Origin: Candidatus Iainarchaeum sp.
GTDB lineage: Archaea; B1Sed10-29; WALL01; JAGHAM01
Reading direction: 5' to 3'
Assembly (NCBI GenBank): GCA_021161465.1
Contig: JAGHAM010000035.1
Span: forward strand, 1 to 17,633
DNA length: 17,633 nucleotides
Shown: piece by piece, positions 9,868-15,404 of the stretch
How the letters are laid out: the number at the start of each line of letters is the position of its first letter
Numbering within the stretch: position 1 is the first letter of the stretch
Position numbers and translations under genes: made by a program
The notes under the pieces: model-generated
What the model saw: only the letters and a program-made list of their open reading frames with translations
Database searches by the model: none
Told to the model about the DNA's origin: nothing

Positions 9868-12095
9868 GAGCAATACCTCTTGTGCCGACTGCAATCATAT
9901 TCCTACTTTGCTTTGCTAGTGGTCAGGTTGGGCTGGCGTCTTGGGGGGATACTTTTGATAATAGTTCTCACGTAGCAACTTCTTCAAATATTGAGATTTC
10001 AAGTGGTTCTGCTCATTTGGCTCATTTAAGCACTGCTAGCTTCACCAGAGGGCAGTCAGTTGAAATTGTTACAGAACCCAATATTTGGAATTACACAGCA
10101 TCTGTGAGTGTTCCAATGGGTTTCCTCACTAACAAACTTTCATTGAATCTAACGGGAGAGGTAGTGGAAACAAGTTCGAAAAAACCTCTAGATGTTGTTC
10201 TGGTAACTGATGTTTCTGGGAGTATGGGTACCACAAAGATGCGTGCAGCAAAAGAGGCCGATAGAATTTTTGTTAATACGGTGCTACCAGATGACACGGG
10301 TCAGACACAGGTAGGTCTTGTTAGTTACTCTTCTGACGCGTATTTGGACAGCTGCTTGACTGATAATAAAGGGGCTTTGATAGATACAATAAATAGTTAT
10401 AGTAGTGGTGGCATGACTTGCATAGCATGCGGAATGGAAATTGCAATAAGCTTGCTTGAGGCAAGCCCAAAAGAGAATAAAGTAATTTTGTTAGTGACTG
10501 ATGGTGAGGCAAATACTGTCAACAAGACAACATCCAGTGGAACCTGTGATGGGATTGCAGTCCTAAATGAGGTTACTGGTTCTTCCTCTGGTTCTGCAAA
10601 AAGCATGTCTAGAAAACTAGCTAAGGTGGCTAATGAGAAAGGTATTGTACTTTACACCATTGGATTTGGAAGCGATGCTGATGATGCACTTTTGCAAGAT
10701 ATGGCAGATAGCGCTAATGGGGACTATTACTATGCTCCCTCTGCTGAAAATCTAAGGGACATCTATAAAGCTATAGCAGTCAAGACTAGCAGGTCTTATC
10801 CTGCAAATGTCACTATCAATGTTGGGGGAACAAACGAGAGCTCCACTCAGTTGTATTTACTAGGCGAGGTAAAAAGCAATGTAGTTAATTTGACTACTCA
10901 GTTGTCGAGCTTGCTGGCATTGTACAAAACCTGTAACTGCTCACATTGTAGTGTTAATGGAAATAACTGCGTGATAGGCATTGGCATCAAGTCAGAATCA
11001 GGGGGAACTTTGCACTTCAGCAATTTAGACTTAAGCGGAATGGCTGGCTCTGGTGGGCTTGCAAGCAAGGTAATCAGGGCGGGCACTCCATTTGGAGGCT
11101 GGCATGAACTGTGCTACGATGCTGGAAACATAGATTCGAACAAGGATATAACAATAGAACTATTTGATGAGTATGGGAATCATTTATTGTGCTCTTATTG
11201 TACAATCCCCATCAACAGCCTAGCCGATAATGGTATGCATTGCTTTGATATAAGCAATATTGTCACGTCAAGAACTAACATAACACTAAATGCAAGCCTA
11301 TATTCCACTGACAGGACAAGCTCACCAGAACTGAGATATTGGAACGTATCCTGGATTAATGCTGTACCTCCCGCCACGGATGCAGGCGGACCATATATCT
11401 GTACCACTGGAGAGACAGTGGTGCTTGATGGAAGCAACACAACAGATGCTTCATACTGTCCAGCTGGTGGCGGTTCCTGTTCTAGTTTAAATTATACATG
11501 GTCCCTAACTGGGCTGAACAGTGTATGGTCTGATACTTTTAACGGGGTTAAACCCTCATTCACATGCCCTCCTGTTGGGAGCTACTCAGTTTCTTTATCA
11601 GTTACTAATCCCAGTAACTTAAAGGGTGTCTATAACACTTACCTCCAATCAAACCCAACAAAACCAAATCTTACCATAGAGACGACATACGTGACTGGGC
11701 CATCGATTGTAGGTATACCCACTGAGATAACCCCAACCGTGAAAAACACAGGTATGTCAAAGAGCCAAAACTACAATATTTCTTATAGCGTTCTTGATGA
11801 GAATAACAATACAATATACCAGGGAAAGAACGTAAGGGTGTCAGGCTTGCCTGGTGACAGGAAGAGGAAGAACTCCTTTAAGTGGACACCGGATAAACCC
11901 GGGAAATATACAATCCAGATACAGGTGCTTAACGAAACTGGCGGCGTTGTATATGCTGATTTAAAAACTACTTATGTGAAGAAACCAGAGGGCACCAGCT
12001 TTGTTGCACCCGAATACCCTGGAGCCTCCATGTTGATAGTGCTGTTGCTGGTACCCCTTATCTCGTATGCATTCTTGCGCAGAAAGCGCGAATAA
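9864..12095 (+). CDS. Large secreted surface protein: VWA, PKD and CARDB-like domains, PEF-CTERM-like anchor
   Basis: A 743-residue exported protein. Residues 1-26 are a signal peptide. A von Willebrand A domain spans about 108-305 with a complete metal-ion-dependent adhesion site: DVSGS (116-120), Thr185 in GGMTC, and Asp213 in VTDGE. A Cys-rich segment follows (TCNCSHCSVNGNNC). A PKD-like domain starts near residue 505 (DAGGPYICTTGETVVLDGS), and a CARDB-like beta domain lies at about 605-695. The tail reads APEYPG, then a hydrophobic helix, then RRKRE, like archaeal PEF-CTERM sorting signals; a plain C-terminal membrane anchor is the alternative. There are at least fifteen N-glycosylation sequons (NxS/T), fitting a glycosylated surface protein. 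It probably binds another surface or cell through the VWA domain. It overlaps the upstream gene by 4 bases. No obvious archaeosortase is in this window. Confidence 0.85.
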   Translation: MRAIPLVPTAIIFLLCFASGQVGLASWGDTFDNSSHVATSSNIEISSGSAHLAHLSTASFTRGQSVEIVTEPNIWNYTASVSVPMGFLTNKLSLNLTGEVVETSSKKPLDVVLVTDVSGSMGTTKMRAAKEADRIFVNTVLPDDTGQTQVGLVSYSSDAYLDSCLTDNKGALIDTINSYSSGGMTCIACGMEIAISLLEASPKENKVILLVTDGEANTVNKTTSSGTCDGIAVLNEVTGSSSGSAKSMSRKLAKVANEKGIVLYTIGFGSDADDALLQDMADSANGDYYYAPSAENLRDIYKAIAVKTSRSYPANVTINVGGTNESSTQLYLLGEVKSNVVNLTTQLSSLLALYKTCNCSHCSVNGNNCVIGIGIKSESGGTLHFSNLDLSGMAGSGGLASKVIRAGTPFGGWHELCYDAGNIDSNKDITIELFDEYGNHLLCSYCTIPINSLADNGMHCFDISNIVTSRTNITLNASLYSTDRTSSPELRYWNVSWINAVPPATDAGGPYICTTGETVVLDGSNTTDASYCPAGGGSCSSLNYTWSLTGLNSVWSDTFNGVKPSFTCPPVGSYSVSLSVTNPSNLKGVYNTYLQSNPTKPNLTIETTYVTGPSIVGIPTEITPTVKNTGMSKSQNYNISYSVLDENNNTIYQGKNVRVSGLPGDRKRKNSFKWTPDKPGKYTIQIQVLNETGGVVYADLKTTYVKKPEGTSFVAPEYPGASMLIVLLLVPLISYAFLRRKRE

Positions 12096-12105
12096 CCTGA
12101 GCTGA

Positions 12106-13131
12106 CTAATCAAGTTTTATCTTTAGCTTTCTGGTTTTTGGATTTATCTCAACGCCAAGCTCGTTGGATATCTCTTCCCAGCTCTTGCCATCTTTCTTCA
12201 TCTGGTTTATCCTGGCGAAAAGTCCCTGTAGCTCGTATAAATGAGCGTAAATCATATCACCATTGGCTTTGCCCTTCTTTATCTTCTCCTCCAACTCTCC
12301 AATTGCTTTCTCTTGCTCCTTGAGTCTTTTCTCCAGCTTCATCTGTTTTTTGTCTTCCTTTGGTTCGGTTTCTATGCTGCTTGAGTAATAGTCATCGACT
12401 GCTTCATTAAAGGTCTTCCTTGGCTCGAATTTATCTTCCCTGGATTTTAACTCCACAATAACAGGTTCACCCTGTATCCCTGGTTTATACTCATCCAAAA
12501 TTTTCTTTAGCTCAGAGAATAATCTTAAAATCTCTTCATCAGTTGGTTCTTCCTTGTTTTTGTTTATGCCTGCTCTGAAGCAGACTTCTTCGAGGTATTT
12601 TCCACTCATGTTTAAGTGCTTTACCATAGAGCGGATTATGTCTTTTTGGTCGAAGATTTTTTTGAATTCCTCGATGGAAACCTCCCTCGGGTCGAGGCCC
12701 TGTGGCTTTGGGAGGGTATACAGCTTCCCGGGTTTGATTACCCTATCCTTCCATCTCTCATGTCTGAGGCAATGTAGGGTTTTACCGTCCTTTTCTATGA
12801 TTAGATTCCCCTTTGAGAATATCTCCATCACTATGGTGTACCCATTGTCGAATTTTATCCTAACCACCCGGTCAAAGCCAGCTTGGCTGACCTCGATGGC
12901 TTTAGAGCCCCTTAGGTGTTTTCGTGCAAACATAGATATGTTAGAGGGTGGTTTAGATTCACGTGAGTACCTGGTCATGAAGACAGATTCTCCAGGCATG
13001 AAAATCAACTCGTGAGAGGTAAGTTTTATCTTAAATCCCCCATCGATATCTTGCATTTTTTCGAAATAACAGCCTTCAAGCTCTTTAAATTCCTTTACTA
13101 GCCAGCTAACCTCAATGTTTGTGACGGACAT
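12106..13131 (-). CDS. rqcH: Rqc2/RqcH-like NFACT protein lacking the C-terminal NFACT-R domain
   Basis: A 341-residue protein matching the first part of archaeal Rqc2/FbpA-like proteins, which are normally much longer. NFACT-N spans about 1-145 and includes FARKHLRG (68-75) and GFDRVVRI (85-92) with Asp87-Arg88, the pair that Rqc2/RqcH proteins need to bind tRNA during tailing of stalled nascent chains. The early Asp (yeast D9) appears replaced by Glu7. A HhH-like helical stretch follows (about 146-215), then KFEPRKTFNEAVDDYY (234-249), typical of the family, then a coiled-coil middle segment (about 258-315, GKSWEEISNEL). It stops at VEINPKTRKLKIKLD, where NFACT-R (DUF814) usually begins. 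There is no room for a frameshifted continuation because the opposing VWA gene ends 10 bases on. The start overlaps the rhomboid gene by 20 bases. Confidence 0.85.
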   Translation of the reverse strand: MSVTNIEVSWLVKEFKELEGCYFEKMQDIDGGFKIKLTSHELIFMPGESVFMTRYSRESKPPSNISMFARKHLRGSKAIEVSQAGFDRVVRIKFDNGYTIVMEIFSKGNLIIEKDGKTLHCLRHERWKDRVIKPGKLYTLPKPQGLDPREVSIEEFKKIFDQKDIIRSMVKHLNMSGKYLEEVCFRAGINKNKEEPTDEEILRLFSELKKILDEYKPGIQGEPVIVELKSREDKFEPRKTFNEAVDDYYSSSIETEPKEDKKQMKLEKRLKEQEKAIGELEEKIKKGKANGDMIYAHLYELQGLFARINQMKKDGKSWEEISNELGVEINPKTRKLKIKLD

Positions 13132-13969
13132 GGTTTTTACCCCGTATTCTTCCCCACATACCCTTCAGGTCGTCAATCAGCCATTCAAATGCCTCTACCC
13201 TAAATTCGTATACATACAGCAGTCCTGCCAGTGCGCCAAACAGGTGTATCAGCATAGATGGGGGAGTTGCAGCCTCCTCTTTACTACCTCTCTCTATTGT
13301 CTGCTTCTGCTGTTCTTTTACTTCTTTTACCTTTACAGTCTCATTTAACTTTTGTGTGAGGTTCTGGACGATGACTATCTCAGGAGTTATGTTTTCTCCC
13401 TTAGCTTTCTTTTCATTTATCTTTTCCTGCAGTTCGCGCAAGCTTGTGTTCAATTGTTGTATTTCACTAACTTTTTCATTTATCACTTTTTCGTGGGCGG
13501 TTTCTATATAACTAATGACAGCTTGTGTTGCAGGGATTGCAATGAACGATGCGAAAACGACACATGCAATGATAACTATCACAGTCTTCTTTATGTCTGC
13601 CATATAACCAGCAACGAGTAGACCAGCTATCCCTGCTGATGAGCCTATGACCCATGTTCCTGGACTCAATAGGGCATAACAAAACCCAGCGACAGTACCT
13701 GAGAACAAAAACACACCGAGGGTATCTTTCCACCCAAACCTGTTTTCGGCGATTAACCCGACAGGTACGAGAACCAGCAGGTTGGCAAGTAAGTGCTTTA
13801 TCCCGATGTGCATGAAGGAGTAGGTGAGGGCCCCTATTAAGTTATTTCTACTGACGCCAAAGAGGTACATCTGGCTTATGGGATATACATACAGCTGGCC
13901 TTTTGACATGAGAAAATAAGCAACTATCAGCGATATAGTTATCGTTAGTGTAGCACGAGCTTTCATCAT
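13112..13969 (-). CDS. Rhomboid intramembrane serine protease with coiled-coil insert
   Basis: A 285-residue membrane protease. Residues 8-22, 56-75, 83-101, 109-124, 128-146 and 238-254 look like six membrane helices. FMHIGIKHLLANLL contains the H59xxxN63 motif that stabilises the oxyanion, GSSAG (109-113) holds the catalytic Ser111, and IHLFGALAG holds the catalytic His242. Between helices 5 and 6, residues about 155-235 form a Glu/Lys/Gln-rich coiled coil in place of a short loop. In GlpG that loop (L5) faces outside and covers the active site. The insert carries four N-glycosylation sequons (N174, N193, N203, N209), which fits an outside location. A soluble tail (255-285) with basic residues follows. 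The start is the ATG at 13969, about 25 bases after a TATA-like box; a second ATG at 13966 is equally in frame. The substrate is unknown. Confidence 0.85.
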   Translation of the reverse strand: MMKARATLTITISLIVAYFLMSKGQLYVYPISQMYLFGVSRNNLIGALTYSFMHIGIKHLLANLLVLVPVGLIAENRFGWKDTLGVFLFSGTVAGFCYALLSPGTWVIGSSAGIAGLLVAGYMADIKKTVIVIIACVVFASFIAIPATQAVISYIETAHEKVINEKVSEIQQLNTSLRELQEKINEKKAKGENITPEIVIVQNLTQKLNETVKVKEVKEQQKQTIERGSKEEAATPPSMLIHLFGALAGLLYVYEFRVEAFEWLIDDLKGMWGRIRGKNHVRHKH

Positions 13970-13989
13970 TAAGGCTTAAGTGCGTAAAC

Positions 13990-13998
13990 TATTTAAGA
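13990..13998 (-). promoter_or_regulatory. TATA-like box for the rhomboid-NFACT operon
   Basis: Minus strand TCTTAAATA, centred about 25 bases before the ATG at 13969, with no ribosome binding site visible. This predicts a leaderless transcript covering the rhomboid and the overlapping NFACT gene. Confidence 0.5.
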
Positions 13999-14010
13999 GT
14001 AGCCTTTGGG

Positions 14011-15222
14011 CTATATGTTCTTCAAAAAGCTCATGGCAAGCTTAGCGGCGGCTGGGCTCTTCTTGACCATGATTTTTAGCACAGTTTTCAAACCCTTGCC
14101 ATGCCCGAGCTCTAATATCGTTTCCGGGTCAACAGCATCAGCTATTAGTTCCATCTGCTCATCGTTGAGTTTTTCAAAGAACTGCCTCACTTTAAGTATT
14201 TTCTTGAACTCCTTCCCTCTGGTTTCTTCCCAAACCTCCTCATACTCCTTTAGCCTCTCCTCAGAGACGTCTCCTTCTTTTATAGCTTTGGTTCCAATTT
14301 CTGCTGCCATCATCCCTGCTTCCATAGCAGAGCCGATTCCACCACCGTGTATGGGGTTAACCATCCTTGCTGCATCCCCTATGACCATCAGACCACCAGT
14401 TACTTTCTTCTCAACAGCGGCTGTAACTGGTATAACACCAGCGTTTACTTCGATGATTGATGCATTCTCAAATTTTTCCTTGTTGTTTTCAATCCATTCA
14501 TCGAGGTACTCTTTAGCGGTTTTCTTCAAGTCACCGCGTATCCCAACACCAACGTTGGCCGTGTCATTGCCCTTTGGGAATACCCAGACATAGCCTCTAG
14601 GAGCCACATCAGTTCCAAAATATAGTTCCATCTTGTGAGGGTCCATCAGTTTAACCCCAGCCATTTCATATTGGTAGCCATCGTCACACTCGGTGAGTGG
14701 CATTGAAGTTTTTATACCAGCATATCTAGCTACCATAGAGTCCACACCGTCAGCCGCTATAACTAACTTTGAGTGGAGTTCTAACTCTTTTCCCTCATGT
14801 TTTACCTTCACACCAGTTACTTGCTCTCCCTCTTTTATGACATCATACACTAGTGCTTTCAGCATGTATTTTGCTCCAGCCCGTATGGCTTCTGCTGCTA
14901 GTTCCTTCTCCCACATCTTCCTCTCTATTATGTACCCTGTCTGACCTGTTTTGCGTGTGTCTATCTCAACACGTTTGCCAGATGGAGAAATTAAGATAGC
15001 ACCATGTATCTCCTGCAGTGCCCATTTAGGATTTGGCTTCTGGTTGGTTATCTTAATCCAGCGCATGGATAAGCCTTCACCACACCTCTTTGGCGCGCCC
15101 AATTCTTGTTTTCTGTCGATAACCAATGTTTTCATTCCTCTCTCCGCGAACTCCTGGGCGCATTTGCTCCCTCCAGGCCCAGCCCCAACTACAATTACAT
15201 CCCACGAAGAATCATACATCAT
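14011..15222 (-). CDS. Geranylgeranyl reductase (digeranylgeranylglycerophospholipid reductase)
   Basis: A 403-residue FAD-dependent reductase of the archaeal GGR family that saturates the isoprenoid chains of ether lipids, probably at the membrane surface. GAGPGG (13-18) is the dinucleotide-binding loop, RCGEG (46-50) contains the conserved Cys47, YVWVFPKGNDTANVGVG (211-227) matches the family motif YxWxFPx(7-8)GxG around the substrate pocket, and GDAA (282-285) with NPIHGGGIG (289-297) is the FAD-binding region. Length is normal for the family. Start choice: an ATG at 15222 with GAGGTGAT at 15227-15234 (4-base spacing); the frame is open back to 15261 but that part lies inside the ferredoxin gene. 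It follows the ferredoxin gene by 5 bases. In Methanosarcina acetivorans a neighbouring ferredoxin donates electrons to this reductase, so the same pairing is likely here. Confidence 0.92.
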   Translation of the reverse strand: MMYDSSWDVIVVGAGPGGSKCAQEFAERGMKTLVIDRKQELGAPKRCGEGLSMRWIKITNQKPNPKWALQEIHGAILISPSGKRVEIDTRKTGQTGYIIERKMWEKELAAEAIRAGAKYMLKALVYDVIKEGEQVTGVKVKHEGKELELHSKLVIAADGVDSMVARYAGIKTSMPLTECDDGYQYEMAGVKLMDPHKMELYFGTDVAPRGYVWVFPKGNDTANVGVGIRGDLKKTAKEYLDEWIENNKEKFENASIIEVNAGVIPVTAAVEKKVTGGLMVIGDAARMVNPIHGGGIGSAMEAGMMAAEIGTKAIKEGDVSEERLKEYEEVWEETRGKEFKKILKVRQFFEKLNDEQMELIADAVDPETILELGHGKGLKTVLKIMVKKSPAAAKLAMSFLKNI

Positions 15223-15226
15223 AAAA

Positions 15227-15234
15227 ATCACCTC
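15227..15234 (-). promoter_or_regulatory. Strong ribosome binding site for geranylgeranyl reductase
   Basis: GAGGTGAT on the minus strand is a near-perfect match to the archaeal 16S rRNA 3' end, with 4 bases to the ATG at 15222. It overlaps the ferredoxin stop codon (15228-15230) and decides the reductase start. Confidence 0.75.
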
Positions 15235-15404
15235 TTCACCTTTATGGCTCCAACCGGGCAAACTAGCTCACAGGCGCCACAATGTATGCATTTGTCTTTA
15301 TCCCATTCTATGCGCGTTTCTTTTAGAGTAAGTGCTGCAACAGGGCACACTGAGGTGCACCCTCCGCAATAACAGCATAAACCACGATTTATCTCCACAG
15401 TCAT
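15228..15404 (-). CDS. Small 2[4Fe-4S] ferredoxin
   Basis: A 58-residue protein reading from the ATG at 15404 to a TGA at 15228. Two cluster motifs are visible: CCYCGGCTSVCPVAA (CxxCxxCxxxCP, residues 10-24) and CIHCGACELVCPVGA (39-53). Each motif gives the four Cys of one [4Fe-4S] cluster, with the fourth Cys of each swapped between clusters as in bacterial-type ferredoxins. The first motif begins with an extra Cys pair (C10-C11). It is a soluble electron carrier. Its ATG overlaps the stop of the upstream coiled-coil gene (ATGA), and its stop overlaps the ribosome binding site of geranylgeranyl reductase, so it is tightly coupled to both. The likely job is passing electrons to the reductase; the ferredoxin-reducing partner is not in this window. 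Confidence 0.92.
   Translation of the reverse strand: MTVEINRGLCCYCGGCTSVCPVAALTLKETRIEWDKDKCIHCGACELVCPVGAIKVKR

What the first reader, a model, noticed from the sequence alone, without database searches (positions are those of the whole stretch)
12106..13131. Rqc2-like protein ends exactly before its NFACT-R domain
The protein keeps NFACT-N with the Asp87-Arg88 pair used for tRNA binding, the HhH stretch and the coiled-coil middle, then stops where NFACT-R (DUF814) normally starts. The opposing gene lies 10 bases away, so the rest cannot be in another frame nearby. Either the domain is encoded elsewhere as a separate subunit (stand-alone NFACT-R proteins are known), or this lineage has a shortened ribosome-rescue factor. 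The early catalytic-region Asp also appears to be Glu7.
Basis: partly seen in the sequence, partly recalled or inferred. Interest (0 to 1): 0.62.

Follow-up and report, generated by a model that had tools for sequence, protein, structure and literature searches.

The report
Ribosome-rescue factor Rqc2 in two genes
In this tiny archaeon the ribosome-rescue protein Rqc2 (RqcH) is not shortened but made as two separate proteins from two distant genes, cut at one small turn, and many related symbiont-type archaea carry exactly the same cut, so the factor probably works there as a two-part complex.

Summary
The missing part is in the same genome: contig C15:10567-11370 encodes 268 aa with the second coiled-coil helix, NFACT-R and the C-terminal tail. 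The two proteins match complementary parts of NCBI's archaeal RqcH model (1-349 and 381-644 of 645). The cut is not at the NFACT-R boundary but about 65 residues earlier, in the two-residue turn of the beta-hairpin between the coiled-coil helices (M-domain). The same cut occurs in every class relative where both genes could be read, and widely in DPANN-type archaea; Asgard, TACK and most euryarchaeal proteins are one chain. In nine single-contig genomes the halves are tens to hundreds of kilobases apart. Best reading: a two-chain Rqc2 that reassembles through hairpin and coiled coil (inferred, not shown). At least two split or re-fusion events hit the same turn. A split in Nanoarchaeota was tabulated in 2013 as "Predicted RNA-binding protein", very probably this gene; the wide spread and exact site were not found in the papers searched.

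The parts
12106..13131 (-). Gene for the N-terminal half of Rqc2/RqcH (341 aa): NFACT-N, HhH-like region, first coiled-coil helix, M-domain strands; stop codon 12106-12108
   Evidence: Foldseek best hits: NEMF 9gy4, RqcH 8s1u/7aqc, yeast Rqc2 8aaf
12868..12873 (-). Codons of D87-R88, the pair matching D97/R98 of B. subtilis RqcH that reads the tRNA anticodon stem-loop
   Evidence: D87/R88 invariant in 17 class members; R88 in all split rows and D87 (24) or E (2) of 26; role from PMC8373112
13111..13113 (-). Codon of E7 (Asp in most one-chain archaeal RqcH)
12493..12675 (-). Helical segment after NFACT-N (residues 153-213), HhH region by position
   Evidence: AlphaFold2 secondary structure; HhH assignment by homology only
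12193..12360 (-). First coiled-coil helix stretch (residues 258-313)
12109..12150 (-). C-terminal M-domain strands (residues 328-341, EINPKTRKLKIKLD); the cut falls right after them
13112..13969 (-). Rhomboid-family gene directly upstream, overlapping the N-half gene by 20 bases; neighbour in 18 of 18 class loci
14011..15261 (-). Geranylgeranyl-reductase-like FAD gene, conserved neighbour in 16 class loci (context only)

Best explanation
The window carries the N-terminal half of a two-gene Rqc2/RqcH. The other half (268 aa: last strand of the M-domain hairpin, second coiled-coil helix, NFACT-R, C-terminal tail) is a separate gene on another contig of the same genome (C15:10567-11370). Both chains together keep every part of the one-chain protein; the cut lies in the two-residue turn between two adjacent strands. 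Shown: both genes exist, they are complementary with nothing of note lost, the breakpoint is conserved, and the tRNA-reading and NFACT-R signatures are kept. Inferred: the chains are made separately and associate by pairing the strands on either side of the cut and packing the two coiled-coil helices, rebuilding an RqcH that binds a split large subunit carrying peptidyl-tRNA and adds a C-terminal tail to the stalled chain as in bacteria and eukaryotes.
For: One NFACT-R gene and no second Rqc2 in the genome. NCBIfam RqcH_arch matches the N-half at 1-349 and the C-half at 381-644 of 645. Same architecture throughout the class and in 50 of 80 named loci. N-ends and C-starts flank one turn: 387 and 389 in a one-chain model with strands 381-386 and 389-394, mean pLDDT 93.6. 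Nine single-contig genomes have separated halves. Hydrophobic pattern of the two coiled-coil helices and the strands matches that of one-chain proteins (rho 0.78-0.88). Both halves absent together in ten genomes tested with both profiles or families. D87-R88 conserved. Homologues with solved RQC complexes.
Against: No experiment or model of the complex; the folding tool takes single chains, so association is inferred. The halves are in different gene neighbourhoods, so balanced expression is not assured by an operon. Residue 7, Asp in most one-chain proteins, is variable in split ones. Tailing activity of archaeal RqcH was not tested here.
Confidence: 0.88

Rival explanations
1. The N-half is a shortened Rqc2 that works alone (tRNA/50S sensor), and the NFACT-R gene has an independent role.
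For: The genes lie in different conserved neighbourhoods: rhomboid and geranylgeranyl reductase for N, radB/cdc48/topA for C. Stand-alone NFACT-R proteins are known elsewhere (own knowledge).
Against: The C-gene carries exactly the missing second coiled-coil helix and hairpin strand, with the one-chain hydrophobic pattern; exposed alone, these would be half structures. Both halves are absent together in ten genomes and both are present in nearly all split genomes.
Confidence: 0.08
2. Artefact: a frameshift, false stop or misassembly splits one gene.
For: The genome is a 40-contig draft.
Against: The halves are in the interior of two different contigs with intact neighbours; the same cut appears in many independent assemblies and in nine single-contig genomes, including one of 605,887 bp, the published length of Nanopusillus acidilobi.
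Confidence: 0.01
3. The halves are joined after all, by trans-splicing of mRNA or by a split intein, giving one chain.
For: Trans-spliced tRNA halves are known in Nanoarchaeum; a split intein in its DNA polymerase is own knowledge.
Against: The N-half ends at the turn with a stop and the C-half begins with a start codon at the turn in the sets read; there is no extra sequence for an intein.
Confidence: 0.02

Closest known systems
Archaeal RqcH (NCBIfam NF041120 RqcH_arch) and eukaryotic NEMF/Rqc2, bacterial RqcH
   Same: Same domains in the same order, the DR pair, coiled coil with M-domain hairpin, NFACT-R; both halves match the family model over complementary ranges.
   Different: Two genes and two chains; each half scores below the model's 400-bit cut-off (222 and 305 bits), so automatic naming by that model would miss both.
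Split 'Predicted RNA-binding protein' of Nanoarchaeum equitans and Nst1 (NEQ438-506, Nst176-251; Podar 2013, PMC3655853 Table 1)
   Same: Very probably the same gene split in Nanoarchaeota: COG1293, this family, bore the old name 'predicted RNA-binding protein homologous to eukaryotic snRNP' (own knowledge). The 605,887-bp genome (= N. acidilobi length, PMC4935971) has the split found here.
   Different: Reported there as intact in all other archaea and not linked to ribosome rescue; identity of the tags was not verified here.
Other split genes in DPANN and Altiarchaeales (reverse gyrase, PheT, Dph2, RpoB; PMC3655853, PMC4975002, PMC6349945)
   Same: Gene fission giving two chains presumed to assemble.
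   Different: None of these is a ribosome-rescue factor; here the cut is in a beta-turn between the arms of a coiled coil.
Stand-alone NFACT-R proteins
   Same: NFACT-R without NFACT-N in one chain.
   Different: The gene here also carries the second coiled-coil helix and the hairpin strand and has its N-half partner in the same genome.

Membership tests
Archaeal RqcH / Rqc2 (NEMF family) | NFACT-N domain with the tRNA-reading DR pair | tested here: met
Archaeal RqcH / Rqc2 (NEMF family) | HhH domain | tested here: inconclusive
   Helices in the expected place in the model with low confidence in parts; no separate HhH profile hit
Archaeal RqcH / Rqc2 (NEMF family) | Two-helix coiled coil with a small beta-hairpin M-domain between the helices | tested here: met
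   Met across the two genes taken together (domain order from PMC8373112)
Archaeal RqcH / Rqc2 (NEMF family) | NFACT-R domain | tested here: met
   Met in the second gene, PF05670 E=1.8e-30; absent from the window gene
Archaeal RqcH / Rqc2 (NEMF family) | One polypeptide reaching the curated 400-bit cut-off of NF041120 | tested here: not met
   222 and 305 bits for the halves; filed as a two-chain variant, not a standard member
Archaeal RqcH / Rqc2 (NEMF family) | Binds 50S-peptidyl-tRNA and directs C-terminal tailing | not testable with these tools
   No experiment possible
Split RNA-binding protein of Nanoarchaeota (Podar 2013) | NEQ438/NEQ506 are the NFACT halves | not tested
   Locus tags not available here; a genome of N. 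acidilobi length has split NFACT halves

The most novel reading that the evidence does not exclude
Rqc2 was cut, or cut and re-joined, at the same two-residue turn more than once in archaea (two changes at the least, three to seven on the best trees). The M-domain hairpin is thus a recurrent natural break point, and two-chain Rqc2 is the usual form in DPANN archaea, perhaps with regulated assembly of the tRNA-reading half and the NFACT-R half.
Probability: 0.6. Interest if true: 0.7.

Novelty: new variant of a known kind. Interest (0 to 1): 0.58.

Why it matters
Rqc2 is held to go back to the last universal common ancestor (PMC6514570) and works as one chain in bacteria and eukaryotes. A natural two-chain form, kept even in very reduced genomes, shows which seam of the protein tolerates separation and offers split constructs for studying RQC. 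It also means surveys that score RqcH by a full-length model would undercount it in DPANN. A shared, exactly placed gene split is a rare character for the disputed relationships of DPANN lineages (compare the primase fusion in PMC7414124), but the sign that the same turn was hit more than once warns against using it as a simple marker.

Tried and rejected
A first translation reference to the C-half was out of frame and was corrected. A single origin of all split forms was tested: with G044 included it is rejected (p-AU 0.0003); without G044 it is not (0.19; 0.11 in a second set with one-chain relatives of the Nanoarchaeota phylum). The same test on 69 rows did not finish. An apparent lack of the N-half in G118, G239 and G005 was resolved: a closer profile found all three. 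The link with CDC48 next to the C-half was considered as a functional hint and kept only as a note.

Full report
Observation. ORF 12106-13131 is on the minus strand, 341 aa. Pfam finds NFACT_N (E=4e-35, profile 58-361 of 456) and no NFACT-R. The opposing VWA gene ends at 12095, 10 bases from the stop codon. D87-R88 and E7 are in the DNA as stated. The AlphaFold2 model of the protein (mean pLDDT 87.3) finds NEMF, RqcH and yeast Rqc2 as best PDB matches.

The rest of the protein. The same genome (976 kb, 40 contigs, 93% complete) holds exactly one NFACT-R domain, at C15:10765-11097, in an open frame that also matches NFACT_N positions 367-420. The gene reads from ATG 10567 to 11370, 268 aa, beginning MELELDLTKSVTENA (a GTG at 10522 is an alternative start). 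Pfam gives NFACT-R at residues 67-177 and the end of the NFACT_N/middle model at 2-52. Against NCBIfam RqcH_arch (645 positions) the window protein covers 1-349 and the second protein 381-644; each falls below the 400-bit cut-off, at 222 and 305 bits. No second full-length Rqc2 exists in the genome as held.

Where the cut lies. Split pairs aligned with one-chain archaeal proteins show the N-halves ending in a strand (window: KLKIKLD) and the C-halves starting in the next strand (M-ELELD), where one-chain proteins read, for example, IVLDL-DG-TNVEI. On the one-chain relative L161 the window half ends at residue 387 and 13 named C-halves all start at 389. The AlphaFold2 model of L161 (mean pLDDT 93.6) has strands 381-386 and 389-394 between the long helices 268-329 and 399-445. 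This is the small beta-hairpin M-domain between the two coiled-coil helices described for RqcH (PMC8373112). In 35 split pairs the N-end falls within one alignment column of the window's, except one with an uncertain placement.

Relatives. Of 19 genomes of the same class, 18 have the C-half and all 19 an N-half once a closer profile is used (the one missing a C-half is 72% complete). Among 80 named loci, 50 are split, 28 one-chain and 2 cut by contig ends. Split records are labelled Micrarchaeota, Diapherotrites, Woesearchaeota, Nanoarchaeota, one Altiarchaeales, or unnamed archaea; two labelled Chloroflexi sit among Diapherotrites in the tree and are probably mislabelled. One-chain records are Asgard, Bathyarchaeota, Thermoprotei, Methanobacteria, Thermoplasmata and one Aenigmatarchaeota, among others. 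In the phylum of G055 (Nanoarchaeota in the wide sense, judged from the named kin in the tree), 310 of 371 genomes have NFACT-R; of about 150 matches listed, about 17 are in long one-chain frames and the rest in short frames (classed by frame length, not inspected one by one). In nine single-contig genomes the halves are far apart: G037 (= AR10, CP010424, 255 kb), G095, G118 (36 kb), G181, G213, G314, G380, G449, G471. G471 is 605,887 bp, the published length of Nanopusillus acidilobi. About ten nearly complete genomes have neither half by the profiles used, so the halves tend to be lost together; absence by profile is not proof.

Why a working two-chain factor. D87-R88 is invariant in 17 class members and R88 in all split rows examined. 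The per-column hydrophobicity of split and one-chain proteins agrees in the first helix (rho 0.78), the strands (0.84 and 0.81) and the second helix (0.88). For the helices it falls to between -0.3 and 0.3 when shifted by one to three residues; the strands alternate, so a shift of two restores agreement there. Position 7 differs: Asp in 30 of 36 one-chain proteins, mixed in split ones. Association of the chains is inferred, not shown.

How often. The split label is strongly clustered: 6 changes on a 144-row C-half tree against 45.8 by shuffling; 7 on a 138-row set, at least 3 forced by starred branches; 4 on the 53-row N+C tree and 6 on a 69-row set. One clade for all split rows is rejected (p-AU 0.0003) because G044, whose N-half stops at the turn and is followed at once by another gene, sits among one-chain proteins related to that of an Aenigmatarchaeota record. 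Without G044 one origin is not rejected (0.19; 0.11). So at least two events hit the same turn, and which were splits and which re-fusions is open. These are single-family trees with long branches.

What is known. Podar 2013 (PMC3655853) lists a split 'Predicted RNA-binding protein' (NEQ438-506, Nst176-251, same site); the text says that three of the genes split at the same site are intact in all other archaeal genomes. This is very probably the same gene, under the old COG1293 name (own knowledge; tags not checked). Searches of the held literature found no report of a DPANN-wide split of Rqc2; the archaeal fusion/fission survey does not name the family under the terms searched in its main text. 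Subscription papers and supplements were not searched.

Mechanism and confidence. The two genes as one factor in two chains: 0.88. Steps shown: existence, complementarity, conserved cut, conserved signatures. Steps inferred: association through hairpin and coiled coil, binding to the split large subunit with peptidyl-tRNA, tailing of the stalled chain.

Noticed in passing
L004 10522-15574 (G000:C15): The C-half gene lies near radB and a CDC48/VAT ATPase gene (neighbours in 13 and 11 loci, the latter including AR10) and topA in 10 loci; CDC48 is part of eukaryotic RQC, so the neighbourhood is suggestive.
   Followed up: partly
window 13112-15261: Rhomboid-family and geranylgeranyl-reductase-like genes are constant neighbours of the N-half gene; the rhomboid protein has a long charged coiled region and overlaps the N-half gene by 20 bases.
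   Followed up: partly
L030, L214, L220, L227 (G050, G110, G070, G090): One-chain proteins of 556-589 aa that lack the M-domain hairpin, with a shortened coiled-coil tip; possible re-fusions or independent trimming.
   Followed up: no
L075, L111, L117, L107 (G012, G046, G057, G036): Shortened N-halves (262-303 aa) that appear to have lost the HhH region between NFACT-N and the coiled coil.
   Followed up: no
genomes G028, G031, G073, G142, G211, G203, G354: Nearly complete archaeal genomes without any detectable Rqc2 half: apparent loss of the whole factor.
   Followed up: partly
L152, L171: Contigs labelled Chloroflexi carry Diapherotrites-like split C-halves, probably mislabelled bins.
   Followed up: no
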